A DNA stretch of 64,000 nucleotides from Aminobacterium colombiense DSM 12261 (GTDB lineage Bacteria > Synergistota > Synergistia > Synergistales > Aminobacteriaceae), in contig NC_014011.1 in assembly GCF_000025885.1 (NCBI RefSeq), forward strand, positions 930,001 through 994,000, read 5' to 3'. This document shows positions 52,882 to 63,040 of the stretch, piece after piece. Below the pieces are notes generated by a model. The model ran no database searches. It was not told where the DNA came from and was given only the letters and a program-made list of their open reading frames with translations. Each line of letters starts with the position of its first letter. The stretch's first letter is position 1. A program made the translations under genes and the position numbers.

Positions 52882-54048
52882 ATGAGTTTTTTGACAAGAA
52901 TCAAAAGGTCAGAGGGTGGCGTTATAGCTGCCTATATAGCTCTGTATGCTGCCCTTTCTTACTTTTTATATTTTTACTTCCAGCTAAAAAATATGCCGCC
53001 CTTTTCCTGGGAAAGCGTTGTTTTGGCATGGGGTTGCGGAACTGTGTTGATATTAGTCTCTGTCATTCCAGCCCGCTGGTCTTCTCCCCTACTCTGTGAA
53101 ATACATACGCTTCTGGCATGGATGGGAGTAACAGGCATCGCTTTTGGCTTTTACTTTATTTTTGCATCAATTGTTTTTGACGCCATTCTCTACTTTTTGC
53201 CCACGATGCATTTCCCCTTTTCCCCTTTCGGCGAGTTATGGATAGCCGCAGGCGTGGCTTTAATCCTCTGCTTTTACGGTTACAGAGAGAGCATGAAAGT
53301 TCGTATCATCCGTGTTCAACTAGAAACAGACAAGCTGCCTGATGACATTAGTAATTTTAGGATTTTACAGATATCCGACCTGCATCTTGGCATATTAATC
53401 AATAAGAAAATGTTGCGACAGATCATGAAACAGATTCAAGAAGAAAATCCAGATGTCATTGTTTCGACTGGGGATCTTTTAGATGGCGAAATTGAAGATG
53501 TAGAAACAATTTCTCAAATGATGCTTCACTACAATCCGCCTTATGGGAAATATGCAGTAACTGGAAATCATGAATTTTATGCAGGGATAGAACATGCACT
53601 GGATTTCACTGGGAGAGCGGGGTTTCAGGTGCTGCGGGGCTCCGTCGTGAATATTGGTCCTATTAGCATAGCCGGAGTAGATGATCCAGGCGGACATTTT
53701 ATTCTGGGGCAACCGGAAGTGGACGAAAGCCAGCTATTGAGAGACTCGCATCAGACGCCAACATTTACTTTACTCTTAAAACACAGGCCCCTTATTCATC
53801 GCGATGCCGTTGGGAAGTTTGATTTGCAGCTTTCCGGACATGTGCATCGGGGACAACTCTTCCCTTTTATGGTATTTACATGGCTTTTTTATAAGCATAC
53901 TGCGGGACTTATGGATTTGGGAAAGGGCTCATGGCTCTATGTAAGCCGCGGCACCGGTACATGGGGGCCGCCTGTGCGAATCTTTGCTTTTCCTGAGTTG
54001 ACCGTAATCGACCTGGTTTCAAGGCATGAAATGGTGGACCGTATATAG
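52882..54048 (+). CDS. Membrane metallophosphoesterase (YkuE-like)
   Basis: 388 residues. Four transmembrane segments (residues ~10-135) precede a calcineurin-like phosphoesterase domain with LQISDLHLG, STGDLLDG, TGNHEFY and SGHVHRGQ. Metals are bound by these Asp/Asn/His residues. The final codons (SRHEMVDRI then TAG) lie inside the 27-base direct repeat that bounds the toxin-antitoxin island. The insertion therefore replaced the original C-terminal end, which overlapped the tRNA-Lys gene. Loss of a few residues is probably harmless. Confidence 0.9.
   Translation: MSFLTRIKRSEGGVIAAYIALYAALSYFLYFYFQLKNMPPFSWESVVLAWGCGTVLILVSVIPARWSSPLLCEIHTLLAWMGVTGIAFGFYFIFASIVFDAILYFLPTMHFPFSPFGELWIAAGVALILCFYGYRESMKVRIIRVQLETDKLPDDISNFRILQISDLHLGILINKKMLRQIMKQIQEENPDVIVSTGDLLDGEIEDVETISQMMLHYNPPYGKYAVTGNHEFYAGIEHALDFTGRAGFQVLRGSVVNIGPISIAGVDDPGGHFILGQPEVDESQLLRDSHQTPTFTLLLKHRPLIHRDAVGKFDLQLSGHVHRGQLFPFMVFTWLFYKHTAGLMDLGKGSWLYVSRGTGTWGPPVRIFAFPELTVIDLVSRHEMVDRI
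54017..54043. repeat. Left 27-base direct repeat (att) of the tRNA-Lys island
   Basis: Begins TTTCAAGGCATGAAATGG and ends TGGACCGTA. Identical to 56257-56283. It lies in the last codons of the metallophosphoesterase gene. Confidence 0.85.
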
Positions 54049-54432
54049 TATAAGCAGCTATTAACATGTTTTATCTAACTTGTCTTGACTTCTACGAGAT
54101 TTATAAGTAACCTGTATTTAATATTAACTACGTCGGCGTAAGATATGGTTATATGGCTTTCCGCAAAGAAGCCTGAAACACATACGATTTGCAGTTAATG
54201 ATGATAACAACCCACCGAAAGTTCTCACATAGTTAAAAGATATGATCCTACTACTTTGTATGCTATTATTTCAACATTCTGCACTTACGCGTTTTGCAAA
54301 CGTATTTTTAATATAAAAAATTGACCCTCTTATTCCGAACGTAAAATTAGATCATGGAAATATTTATCAAAATAAGTCATTGTGAGGAGTCTCGCAGTTA
54401 ATGCGCTTTTATTACAAGAGGGGGTTATTTAG
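54044..54432. other. 389-base non-coding leader of the island
   Basis: A/T-rich with no convincing frame. The region could be the remains of a lost integrase gene, but I found no recombinase box. A GAGGGGG ribosome site near 54420 belongs to the exonuclease relic. Confidence 0.35.
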
Positions 54433-54600
54433 ATAACCAGTTTTTCTGCCATAGATTTTGAAGCAGCAAATGAGAAAAGATGCAGCCCATCTATTCTTGG
54501 GATAACTATTGTTGAAAATGGTGAAATTACAGAAACGAAATCGTGGCTCATAAAACCACCTAAAGATTATTATTACTTTACCCCTTTCAACAATATGAGC
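54433..54600 (+). pseudogene. 5' fragment of a DnaQ-like 3'-5' exonuclease
   Basis: The frame from ATA at 54433 (in place of ATG, 8-10 bases after AGAGGGGG) reads TSFSAIDFEAANEKRCSPS, ILGITIVENGEITETKSWLI, then PPKDYYYFTPFNN. This is the N-terminal ExoI motif (DFE) region of DNA polymerase III epsilon-like exonucleases. It then loses homology after ~56 codons. It is truncated by deletion and has a mutated start. Confidence 0.75.
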
Positions 54601-54719
54601 GTGAAGAAGTTGGCCTACTATTCCCCTACCTTAAATAAGGGTTATCCAATAAGGTGTAATGAGAACTTGACAAATATAAAGAGGTACACCATAATTTACT
54701 TAACTTATAGGTTAATAAA

Positions 54720-55121
54720 ATGATATTAGAGATCATCGTTAAAGGAAATTTCACTGTTTGTGGAATTGTTATGCCTAATAATGATGATCTTGATTGTACT
54801 TTTTTCTTTTCTGAAGAATGGATGCCTCCTAATTCTAGGTGGGAAAGAAGCAGAATTAAATTAATGAGACAAATCGACCTTGCTGCAAAAGATCCAAAGC
54901 TTGTAACGATATGTTGCCACTCCATTGCTCCTGAAATTTGGCAATTTAAGAGTGGCCCATATAGAATTCCCTGGTTTTACGATGAGGGAAAGTTAATTAT
55001 CTGTTCCCATGTCTTCGTAAAAAAGCAGAAAAAAACTCCAAAAGCTGAAAGGGATAGGGCAATAAAAGCTAGGGAGGATTACTTAAAAGCAAAAGAATCT
55101 GGGGCCATAGTGTTTAAATGA
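54720..55121 (+). CDS. higB: HigB-type toxin (RelE superfamily) of a toxin-antitoxin-chaperone system
   Basis: 133 residues. The block IWQFKSGPYRIPWFYDEGKLIICSHVFVKK, then KKTPKAERDRAIK and ending AREDYL, is the conserved C-terminal half of HigB/Gp49 RNase toxins. The toxin likely cleaves mRNA on the ribosome. The antitoxin gene starts 12 bases downstream, and toxin-first order is typical of higBA. The ribosome site is weak (AGG). Confidence 0.8.
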   Translation: MILEIIVKGNFTVCGIVMPNNDDLDCTFFFSEEWMPPNSRWERSRIKLMRQIDLAAKDPKLVTICCHSIAPEIWQFKSGPYRIPWFYDEGKLIICSHVFVKKQKKTPKAERDRAIKAREDYLKAKESGAIVFK

Positions 55122-55132
55122 GGTGATTAAAC

Positions 55133-55564
55133 ATGGAATACGGAAGAAGGTTTAAGAAAGCCTTCGAGAAGGCTAGAAAATCAGTTGACTATTGGATGGA
55201 AGATTTAAGACTCGATTTCTTGAATTCTCTTATTGCAACGATTGAAGCAAAAGGGATTTCACAAAAGGAGTTAGGAAAGCGTTTGGGGAAATCGGAAGCA
55301 TATATCAGTAAAGTTATTAATTCCAATTCTTCAAATTTTACATTGAAAACTATGATACAACTTTGTCTTGCCCTTGATTCCAAGATTTCCTTAAAAATTG
55401 AAGACATCGAACCTGTATCAGATTTTAATTGGCAAGGATTAACAAACGCACATGAAGTCGTTCCCGTGTTATGGGGAAGCAGTGATGAGACCGTTCTTGT
55501 GCCATTAATGAAAAATCATGGGGAGAAATTTTATGAACATAATGAATGTCCCGGTGCCGCTTGA
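55133..55564 (+). CDS. higA: HigA-type antitoxin with C-terminal chaperone-addiction extension
   Basis: 143 residues. A central XRE helix-turn-helix (residues ~40-90: SQKELGKRLGKSEAYISKVIN) is the DNA-binding antitoxin. After residue ~95, a ~45-residue tail (DFNWQGLTNAHEVVPVLWG and on) resembles the ChAD segment through which a SecB-like chaperone protects antitoxin in TAC systems. It overlaps the chaperone gene by 32 bases. The antitoxin normally represses its own operon. Confidence 0.82.
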   Translation: MEYGRRFKKAFEKARKSVDYWMEDLRLDFLNSLIATIEAKGISQKELGKRLGKSEAYISKVINSNSSNFTLKTMIQLCLALDSKISLKIEDIEPVSDFNWQGLTNAHEVVPVLWGSSDETVLVPLMKNHGEKFYEHNECPGAA

Positions 55565-55997
55565 AATCGATCATTATTTTTTCCCAGAGATAGTATTTAA
55601 GGCTTTTCCGCCAGGAAAGAAAAAGAAAAAAGTAGTCCCTGACTGTAATGTAAATTATTCTCATACGCCTCTTGATAATTCTGGAACATTTCAGGTTTTT
55701 CTTCGAGTTATATCGAATGAAGATGAAAAGTCAGAGCACTACTATTATAAATTCAGTATAGCAGCTGTAGGCATCTTCAAATGGAGCAATGGATTTCCTC
55801 CTGGTGAAAAAGAAAGGAAAGCCTTTGAAGAAAGGTTAGTCATTACGGGGTTAAGTATCCTTTATAGTGGCGTTAGAAATATGCTCCAAACTATAACAGG
55901 AATCGGTCCCTATTCTCCACCTTATATCCTCAAACCTATTTCTTTTGTGCCAGGAACGGAGGAAGGATCCTTAACACCTGAATCTCCAAACGAATAA
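55533..55997 (+). CDS. SecB-like chaperone of a toxin-antitoxin-chaperone system
   Basis: About 154 residues from ATG at 55533 (GGGGAG upstream, inside higA). SecB-family features: an early EIVFKAF strand, YYYKFSIAAVGIFKW, then a C-terminal helix-turn RLVITGLSILYSGVRNMLQTI with YSPPYILKPISF at the end, matching the PPLxLPPINF end of SecB. In TAC modules such as Rv1955-1957 the chaperone binds the antitoxin tail. The genome probably has another SecB for export. Confidence 0.8.
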   Translation: MNIMNVPVPLEIDHYFFPEIVFKAFPPGKKKKKVVPDCNVNYSHTPLDNSGTFQVFLRVISNEDEKSEHYYYKFSIAAVGIFKWSNGFPPGEKERKAFEERLVITGLSILYSGVRNMLQTITGIGPYSPPYILKPISFVPGTEEGSLTPESPNE

Positions 55998-56047
55998 GAA
56001 ACAGATTTGGCCAATAATTAATCCGTATAATTTATACTAAAACATTT

Positions 56048-56076
56048 AAGCCTAGCGTGATTTTCGCACTAGGCTT
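56048..56076 (+). terminator. Intrinsic terminator after the TAC genes
   Basis: Arms AAGCCTAG / CTAGGCTT with an inner CG pair, then TTGCTTTTG, 50 bases after the chaperone stop. Confidence 0.8.
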
Positions 56077-56256
56077 TTGCTTTTGTTATCAACATTCAAA
56101 TTGAGCTAACTGCCGCTCAATTACAGTATTTGGACAACCATACTCATTAAAAAAGTAGACGGATGTTTTTGTTTCAAAACCGTGTAAGATGTTTTCAGAA
56201 GTTTCTCGTTCAGAGGTAAAACTAGGCGAAAAGTTGACTATTACTGATTTTGTCTA

Positions 56257-56283
56257 TTTCAAGGCATGAAATGGTGGACCGTA
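56257..56283. repeat. Right 27-base direct repeat (att) over the tRNA-Lys 3' end
   Basis: Identical to 54017-54043. The last 12 bases belong to the tRNA-Lys acceptor/CCA end and the rest lies downstream. This copy keeps the tRNA intact. Confidence 0.85.
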
Positions 56284-56347
56284 CAGGAATCGAACCTGTA
56301 ACCCCCTGATTAAGAGTCAGGTGCTCTGCCGATTGAGCTAACGGTCC
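56272..56347 (-). tRNA. tRNA-Lys (anticodon CUU)
   Basis: 76 bases with encoded CCA. Acceptor GGACCGT/ACGGTCC; anticodon stem CCTGA/TCAGG with loop CTCTTAA, giving CTT. T-loop TTCGATT. It is the last gene of a five-tRNA minus-strand array, and its 3' end is the target of the TAC island. Confidence 0.94.
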
Positions 56348-56652: not shown

Positions 56653-56729
56653 TGGAGCGGGAAACGGGATTCGAACCCGCGACCTACGGCTTGGAAGGCC
56701 ATCGCTCTAGCCAACTGAGCTATTCCCGC
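56653..56729 (-). tRNA. tRNA-Gly (anticodon UCC)
   Basis: 77 bases with encoded CCA. Anticodon stem ATGGC/GCCGT with loop CTTCCAA gives TCC (GGA codons). Its 5' part, from the 5' end to the T-arm boundary (56682-56729), lies in the 133-base repeat bounding the downstream element. It is the first gene of the array, and a sigma-70 promoter lies 36 bases upstream of the tRNA. Confidence 0.94.
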
Positions 56730-56814
56730 TCGTTGCAACGAAGTTCTTTCGTTCAGCACGGGAAATACTACCATATGACCAGCATTCCTGCAACCATTTT
56801 TTGTGACTTATTTA
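56682..56814. repeat. Left 133-base direct repeat of the tRNA-Gly element
   Basis: Perfectly identical to 62908-63040. It contains the tRNA-Gly 5' half including the anticodon, plus 85 bases upstream of the tRNA with its promoter. It marks the boundary of the integrated element. Confidence 0.9.
56765..56793 (-). promoter_or_regulatory. Promoter of the tRNA-Gly/Arg/His/Arg/Lys array
   Basis: TTGCAG (56788-56793) and TAGTAT (56765-56770) with a 17-base spacer on the minus strand, 36 bases before the tRNA-Gly 5' end. It lies within the 133-base repeat, so a second copy is present in the right repeat. Confidence 0.65.
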
Positions 56815-56922: not shown

Positions 56923-57858
56923 ATGTCTGGAAACGTGGCAAGGCTCTTTAAAACTGAAGAAACATGGCAACAAGTCGTAGAACGGTATGTTTTGACAAGG
57001 AAGGCTGACGGACTAGCCCCTCGAACCGTTAAGGATTATCGATACCATCTAACACGGTTCTTTACCGCCTACCCTGAGGGGTTGAACCCCGACAAGGCTA
57101 AACGTTGCGTTCTTGAGTATATGTCACTCGAACGAAGCCCGGGGTATCACAATATGGTATTGAAGTACCTCAGGTGCTTTTTCCGATGGACTGTCAACGA
57201 AGGGATACTATACAGCAACCCCTGTAGCGGGATACGGAGTCGCAAAGCCCAGCCAAAGATAGCCCAGCATAGCCCCGACGTTGTGAAGGCCCTTCTCGCA
57301 CTCCCTGACCAAAGCACATATACGGGCTTAAGGAGTTACGCCCTGCTCCTGCTCTCTCTTGACACGGGGATACGCCCCCGGGAAGCCCTTTCCCTCCGTG
57401 TTGAAGATGTTTCCATTCCCGCCCGGGTCGTTGTCGTTCGTGCTGAAACAGCCAAGACAAGGGTACAGCGAACCTTGCCCATATCTGACCAGACAGCACA
57501 AGCCATCATGAAGCTTGTTTCCATACGCCCCAAGGAATGGAGAAACGCCCCTCTCTTCTGCTCACGGGACGGGCAACCCCTCCGTGTCAATTCGTGGTAT
57601 CACACTGTCAAAGGGTATGGAGAAAAGATAGGGGCTGACATTACGCCTTACAGCTTGCGTCACCTGTTCGCCCTCTACTTCTTGAGGAACAACGGCAACA
57701 CCTTTGCCCTTCAACGGATTATGGGACATGACAACCTCGACACCACAAAGATATATGTAGCCCTTGCCCAGTCTGACCTTGAGGAACAACACGAACTGGC
57801 AAGCCCGGTCAATGCATTATTCCCTAAACGACAAAGACTCGGGAAGATAAGGGACTAG
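56923..57858 (+). CDS. Tyrosine recombinase (integrase) of the tRNA-Gly element
   Basis: 311 residues. The N-terminal SAM-like core-binding domain has GLAPRTVKDYRYHLTRFF. Catalytic boxes are box I LDTGIRPREALSLR (Arg), a Lys in AKTRVQRTLPI, box II TPYSLRHLFA (Arg; Tyr takes the place of the usual His), RIMGHDNLDTTKIY (box III His and the nucleophilic Tyr) and ALAQSDLEEQHELASPV. The ATG follows GGGAGGG. The gene lies ~108 bases from the repeat, as integrases usually do. Confidence 0.92.
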   Translation: MSGNVARLFKTEETWQQVVERYVLTRKADGLAPRTVKDYRYHLTRFFTAYPEGLNPDKAKRCVLEYMSLERSPGYHNMVLKYLRCFFRWTVNEGILYSNPCSGIRSRKAQPKIAQHSPDVVKALLALPDQSTYTGLRSYALLLLSLDTGIRPREALSLRVEDVSIPARVVVVRAETAKTRVQRTLPISDQTAQAIMKLVSIRPKEWRNAPLFCSRDGQPLRVNSWYHTVKGYGEKIGADITPYSLRHLFALYFLRNNGNTFALQRIMGHDNLDTTKIYVALAQSDLEEQHELASPVNALFPKRQRLGKIRD

Positions 57859-62907: not shown

Positions 62908-63040
62908 ACCTACGGCTTGGAAGGCCATCGCTCTAGCCAACTGAGCTATTCCCGCTCGTTGCAACGAAGTTCTTTCGTTCAGCACGGGAAATACTACCAT
63001 ATGACCAGCATTCCTGCAACCATTTTTTGTGACTTATTTA
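62908..63040. repeat. Right 133-base direct repeat with truncated tRNA-Gly
   Basis: Perfect copy of 56682-56814. It holds 49 bases of the tRNA-Gly 5' half (62908-62956) and the promoter upstream. No 3' half follows; the tRNA fragment runs into element sequence at 62907. Transcription here would yield a tRNA fragment, not a functional tRNA. Confidence 0.9.

What the first reader, a model, noticed from the sequence alone, without database searches (positions are those of the whole stretch)
54017..56283. HigB-HigA-SecB-like toxin-antitoxin-chaperone module on a 2.24-kb tRNA-Lys island
Toxin, XRE antitoxin with a long C-terminal tail and a SecB-like gene occur in TAC order inside a 27-bp tRNA-bounded island without an integrase. 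The antitoxin tail looks like a chaperone-addiction segment. The combination of TAC with a tRNA-bounded, integrase-less unit is unusual.
Basis: partly seen in the sequence, partly recalled or inferred. Interest (0 to 1): 0.75.

Follow-up and report, generated by a model that had tools for sequence, protein, structure and literature searches.

The report
Toxin–antitoxin–chaperone operon on decayed tRNA island
A small stretch of foreign DNA, inserted at the end of a lysine tRNA gene and stripped of the enzyme that put it there, still carries an intact three-gene poison–antidote–chaperone operon of a known kind; it is a good example rather than a new system.

Summary
A perfect 27-bp repeat (54017-54043 and 56257-56283) bounds a 2.2-kb insertion at the 3' end of tRNA-Lys. 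Both sequenced congeners have the empty site. Inside are three intact co-directional genes: a HigB/Gp49 toxin, an XRE antitoxin with a long tail, and a SecB-fold chaperone. Toxin and chaperone are confirmed by profile and predicted fold. 'Integrase-less' is explained: the right end keeps a broken C-terminal piece of a P4-type tyrosine integrase. With a truncated exonuclease fragment and a repressor-promoter relic, this marks a decayed prophage or island whose only intact cargo is the TAC. Two patterns support the mechanism. HigA antitoxins with an adjacent SecB end in -AA, a ClpX-type degron, in 13 of 16 cases; those without do so in 3 of 78. The operator TTAAC-N6-GTTAA lies in front of higB in ten TAC loci from at least three phyla. 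Most likely SecB shields the antitoxin tail from ClpXP, and loss of shielding frees the HigB ribonuclease. Chaperone dependence, toxicity and the trigger are inferred, not shown.

The parts
54017..54043 (+). Left direct repeat (attL-like): original chromosomal copy of the tRNA-Lys 3' end plus 15 bp of flank
   Evidence: Exact repeat of 56257-56283; congeners show the uninterrupted site
54057..54144 (+). Relic resembling the promoter region upstream of the repressor gene of the tRNA-Met prophage-like element in the same genome
   Evidence: 66 bp at 74% identity, E 3e-4 genome-wide; longer gapless alignment; weak on its own
54433..54612 (+). Truncated N-terminal fragment similar to a DEDD-type exonuclease, no intact gene
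   Evidence: 45% identity over 51 aa to an intact ORF in G048, E 1.2e-9; no Pfam match; exonuclease assignment from the motif AIDFEtAN, i.e. from knowledge
54667..54695 (+). Promoter: TTGACA (54667-54672), 17-bp spacer, CATAAT (54690-54695)
   Evidence: Direct reading; same arrangement in most TAC loci aligned
54700..54715 (+). Operator-like palindrome TTAACTTATAGGTTAA just before higB
   Evidence: Only match in the window, chance 0.12; same TTAAC-N6-GTTAA before higB in ten TAC loci aligned
54720..55121 (+). higB-like toxin gene, 133 aa (Gp49/DUF891, RelE superfamily)
   Evidence: PF05973 E 5.1e-12; profile to S. pneumoniae HigB 6af3 1.2e-6; fold matches 6af4 2.9e-5 and Mtb HigB1 7awk 5.7e-3
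55133..55564 (+). higA-like XRE antitoxin gene, 143 aa, with C-terminal tail from about residue 95 ending -PGAA
   Evidence: PF01381 4.2e-9, PF13744 4.6e-7; tail and -AA end shared with TAC relatives
55533..55997 (+). secB-like chaperone gene, 154 aa, RBS GGGGAG, overlaps higA by 32 bp
   Evidence: NCBIfam SecB 2.8e-4; family profile to PDB SecB 3.8e-6; model pLDDT 83.5; Foldseek top 18 hits all SecB incl. 5mtw
56095..56184 (-). Relic of the C-terminal region of a P4-type tyrosine integrase
   Evidence: tblastn to intact tRNA-Met integrase E 4e-5; DNA 79% over 52 bp, E 1e-5 to 9e-5; 0 of 2000 shuffles and 0 of 408 control stretches reach its score
56257..56283 (+). Right direct repeat (attR-like), overlapping the 3' end of tRNA-Lys
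56272..56347 (-). tRNA-Lys(ctt), the integration target, restored intact
   Evidence: ARAGORN; nearly identical in congeners

Best explanation
A HigBA–SecB toxin–antitoxin–chaperone operon is the surviving cargo of a prophage or genomic island that once integrated at the tRNA-Lys 3' end through a P4-type integrase and has since lost that integrase and most other genes. Proposed working: HigA binds HigB and represses the promoter through the TTAAC-N6-GTTAA site. The HigA tail is unfolded and ends in a ClpX-type -AA degron, so HigA lasts only while the SecB-like protein holds the tail. When the chaperone is drawn away (for example by phage capsid protein or export clients), HigA is degraded and HigB, a ribosome-dependent mRNA ribonuclease, stops growth. 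Shown here: genes, order, folds, insertion, relics, shared operator and tail end. Inferred: toxicity, chaperone dependence, ClpXP degradation, trigger.
For: Three-gene order and overlap; toxin family and fold; SecB profile and fold. -AA end in 13 of 16 HigAs with adjacent SecB versus 3 of 78 without, p 9e-11; versus 0 of 19 of similar length, p 4e-7. tmRNA tag of this genome ends ALAA. Mtb HigA1 ends in a ClpX degron, and E. coli CmdA ends LAA and is degraded when the chaperone is drawn off (PMC8165232, PMC11618068). Empty sites in both congeners. Integrase relic. In G037 an intact P4-type integrase abuts tmRNA and a HicAB–SecB TAC converges on it, the same layout.
Against: No experiment. The SecB-like protein alone falls below Pfam SecB detection. 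Addiction tails are not alignable to the Mtb one, so the tail's role is by analogy. Five HigAs with a clear or possible SecB do not end in -AA: L076 (AV), the relic L035 (AV), L169 (PA), L117/L199 (PC, weak SecB) and L113/L201 (LAG, SecB seen only by eye). The search profile itself was built from -AA sequences. The integrase relic is only about 30 aa, and the repressor-promoter relic is weaker.
Confidence: 0.85

Rival explanations
1. The island is a minimal mobile unit, not a remnant: it never carried its own integrase and is moved in trans by an integrase elsewhere in the genome.
For: Perfect repeats and intact tRNA imply a fairly recent or well-kept insertion; the genome holds other tyrosine recombinases; in G034 a TAC-only unit sits between 102-bp repeats of the neuC start with no integrase.
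Against: Integrase relic in the right place and orientation, exonuclease fragment, repressor-promoter relic; no second copy of the island in the genome.
Confidence: 0.1
2. A plain HigBA toxin–antitoxin pair beside an unrelated SecB-like export chaperone; the chaperone does not control the antitoxin.
For: SecB homologs do act in export; the genome has no Pfam-detectable SecB, so this one could serve export.
Against: Overlapping genes, recurrent HigBA or HicAB neighbours, and tail plus -AA end tracking with SecB. Known TAC chaperones can replace export SecB while controlling the toxin pair (PMC6377645), so the two roles do not exclude each other.
Confidence: 0.07
3. The operon is a decaying remnant with no present function.
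For: Neighbouring genes in the island are broken; decayed TACs are seen in G076 (L035) and G069 (L038).
Against: All three ORFs, promoter, operator and RBS are intact while everything around them is broken.
Confidence: 0.1

Closest known systems
Mycobacterium tuberculosis TAC (Rv1955-Rv1956-Rv1957, HigB1-HigA1-SecBTA)
   Same: Gene order toxin-antitoxin-chaperone; HigB fold toxin; XRE antitoxin with C-terminal extension; SecB fold chaperone (5mtw among top fold hits); hydrophobic C-terminal ClpX-type end (Val-Ala there, Ala-Ala here; PMC8165232).
   Different: Sequence identity is low (14-16% for the chaperone in the structural alignment); the tail is not alignable; here it lies on a tRNA island relic in Synergistota.
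Geobacter lovleyi HigBA-SecB TAC (Glov_3492-3491 and chaperone; PMC5105189)
   Same: HigBA-type TAC shown to be functional in E. coli.
   Different: Its sequence was not compared here.
CmdTAC of E. coli (PMC11618068)
   Same: SecB-like chaperone protects an antitoxin ending in LAA from ClpP.
   Different: Toxin is an mRNA ADP-ribosyltransferase, not a HigB ribonuclease.
P4-type tRNA/tmRNA-integrated islands, e.g. G037 island at tmRNA with HicAB-SecB
   Same: Target is a tRNA-like gene 3' end; integrase next to it; TAC convergent with the integrase.
   Different: In the window the integrase is reduced to a short relic.

Membership tests
HigBA-type TAC (toxin-antitoxin-chaperone) | Toxin, antitoxin and chaperone genes in one operon in that order | tested here: met
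   54720-55997, same strand, 11-bp gap and 32-bp overlap; single promoter
HigBA-type TAC (toxin-antitoxin-chaperone) | Toxin of HigB/RelE superfamily | tested here: met
   PF05973 5.1e-12; fold match to HigB
HigBA-type TAC (toxin-antitoxin-chaperone) | XRE antitoxin with C-terminal extension beyond the HTH domain | tested here: met
   HTH to about residue 90 of 143; median length 144 with SecB versus 111 without
HigBA-type TAC (toxin-antitoxin-chaperone) | Chaperone of SecB family | tested here: met
   not reached by Pfam SecB for this member alone
HigBA-type TAC (toxin-antitoxin-chaperone) | Antitoxin depends on the chaperone through its tail | not testable with these tools
   Needs expression and stability assays
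HigBA-type TAC (toxin-antitoxin-chaperone) | C-terminal ClpX-type degron on the antitoxin | tested here: inconclusive
   Sequence ends PGAA; pattern supported in relatives; degradation not assayed
tRNA-integrated genomic island | Direct repeats including the tRNA 3' end and empty site in relatives | tested here: met
tRNA-integrated genomic island | Own functional integrase | tested here: not met
   Only a short C-terminal relic
CmdTAC | ADP-ribosyltransferase toxin | tested here: not met
   Toxin is Gp49/HigB

The most novel reading that the evidence does not exclude
TAC operons in Synergistota act as retention devices or as small mobile units in their own right: they outlast the elements that brought them (tRNA-Lys relic here) or insert alone with long target repeats (neuC in G034), as proposed for restriction-modification systems.
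Probability: 0.12. Interest if true: 0.55.

Novelty: new member of a known kind. Interest (0 to 1): 0.36.

Why it matters
It gives a clear natural case in which an addiction-type operon is the only intact part of a decayed integrated element. The comparison adds a quantitative link between chaperone-dependent antitoxins and a ClpX-type C-terminus, and a shared operator across distant bacteria. Both can be tested directly by mutating two residues or one 16-bp site. The -LAA end of known TAC antitoxins had already been noted (PMC11618068), so this extends rather than founds the idea.

Tried and rejected
Single-sequence Pfam, PADLOC and PDB sequence searches with the SecB-like protein found nothing useful; the Toxin A repeat hits are chance. 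tblastn of the SecB-like protein in plasmids and phages, and scans of viral contigs, found nothing. The genome-contig scan with the HigA profile gave few loci, but including TACs in Desulfohalobiaceae and WOR-3. Idea that the intact recombinase at 56923 is the island's own integrase: it lies in its own element with 133-bp repeats, so rejected. No relative of the relic integrase at tRNA-Lys was found in 188 Synergistota genomes by DNA search. No paper on this operon in Aminobacterium was found in the held library. Sala et al. 2013, which surveyed TACs, is not held and may list it.

Full report
Observation. The window lies in a 1,980,592-bp single-contig genome, a size I recall for Aminobacterium colombiense (Synergistota); no tool named the organism. 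The 27-bp repeat at 54017-54043 and 56257-56283 is exact, and a core of it occurs nowhere else in the window. The right copy overlaps the 3' end of tRNA-Lys. In both congeners held, G001 and G002, the phosphoesterase gene to the left is followed directly by tRNA-Lys, and joined flanks align through the junction in G001. The island is therefore an insertion of about 2.2 kb. Its G+C is 35.2% against 42.1% for the window.

Genes. The toxin gene (54720-55121) matches Pfam Gp49 (5.1e-12). Its family profile finds S. pneumoniae HigB in the PDB (1.2e-6), and its model (pLDDT 85) matches HigB structures, including Mtb HigB1. The antitoxin (55133-55564) has an XRE domain and a tail of about 50 residues. 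The third gene (55533-55997) escapes Pfam on its own, but NCBIfam SecB matches weakly (2.8e-4), seven of ten relatives match Pfam SecB, the family profile finds PDB SecB (3.8e-6), and the model (pLDDT 83.5) matches only SecB structures at the top, including the Mtb TAC chaperone 5mtw.

Relatives. SecB-like proteins of this family occur in 17 of 188 Synergistota genomes, and not in the two congeners. Their partners are HigB-HigA in G034, G044, G182, G137 and G177 (two loci), with a further HigB-HigA-SecB operon in G153 found through its antitoxin; the partners are HicA-HicB in G037, G040, G026, G010 (HicB seen), G058, G033 and G125. No Pfam SecB was found in the window's genome.

Regulation and tail. 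The sequence TTGACA-N17-CATAAT is followed by TTAACTTATAGGTTAA and the higB start. The palindrome TTAAC-N6-GTTAA lies before higB in all ten TAC loci aligned, and in L199 and the SecB-less G026 locus. HigAs were classed by whether a SecB-like gene follows: with it, 13 of 16 end in -AA; without it, 3 of 78 (Fisher p 9e-11); among chaperone-less HigAs of similar length, 0 of 19 (p 4e-7). Caveats: sequences are related, the search profile was built from -AA members, and at least one 'without' case (L113/L201, ending LAG) appears by eye to have a divergent SecB. [quoted passage not shown] The genome's own tmRNA tag ends ALAA.

Why there is no integrase. Minus-strand 56095-56184 resembles the C-terminal region of the intact P4-type integrase at tRNA-Met in the same genome (tblastn 4e-5; DNA 79% over 52 bp). 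None of 2000 shuffles and none of 408 control stretches of the window reached its score. It lies between the TAC and tRNA-Lys, on the strand expected. A broken exonuclease-like fragment (54433-54612; 45% to an intact ORF) and a weak match to a repressor promoter region point the same way. In G037 an intact relative of that integrase abuts tmRNA, with a HicAB-SecB TAC convergent on it. The island is best read as a decayed prophage or island in which the TAC is the only intact cargo.

Verdict. The absence of an integrase is decay, not a new type of unit. I file it as a new member of HigBA-SecB TACs, with chaperone dependence untested.

Noticed in passing
window 56682-56814 and 62908-63040: A 133-bp perfect direct repeat covering part of tRNA-Gly bounds a separate 6.2-kb element with an intact tyrosine recombinase (56923-57858) and a helicase-like gene. 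The tRNA cluster thus has insertions at both ends.
   Followed up: partly
L022 5875-5976 and 7512-7613 (G034): A HigBA-SecB TAC sits between two 102-bp, 90% identical copies of the start of neuC, with no integrase: a TAC inserted into a protein gene with a long repeat. The genome is a MAG, so an assembly artefact is possible.
   Followed up: partly
L035 (G076) and L034 (G026): Natural breakdown cases: in G076 HigA stops before the tail and SecB is truncated; in G026 the HigB and HigA frames are fused, SecB is absent and HigA no longer ends in -AA.
   Followed up: no
window 52882-54048: The insertion gives the phosphoesterase gene a new C-terminus (...MVDRI); in the joined empty site the frame would run on into tRNA-Lys.
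   Followed up: no
L076 (IMG/VR contig): A viral contig carries a HigA-like protein ending IAV followed by a SecB-like gene and a large serine-recombinase-like gene.
   Followed up: no
L100 (Thiodictyon plasmid pTs485) and L099 (Cupriavidus plasmid): MqsA-SecB pairs on plasmids; one lies directly upstream of DISARM drmA, and the other antitoxin ends LEAA.
   Followed up: no
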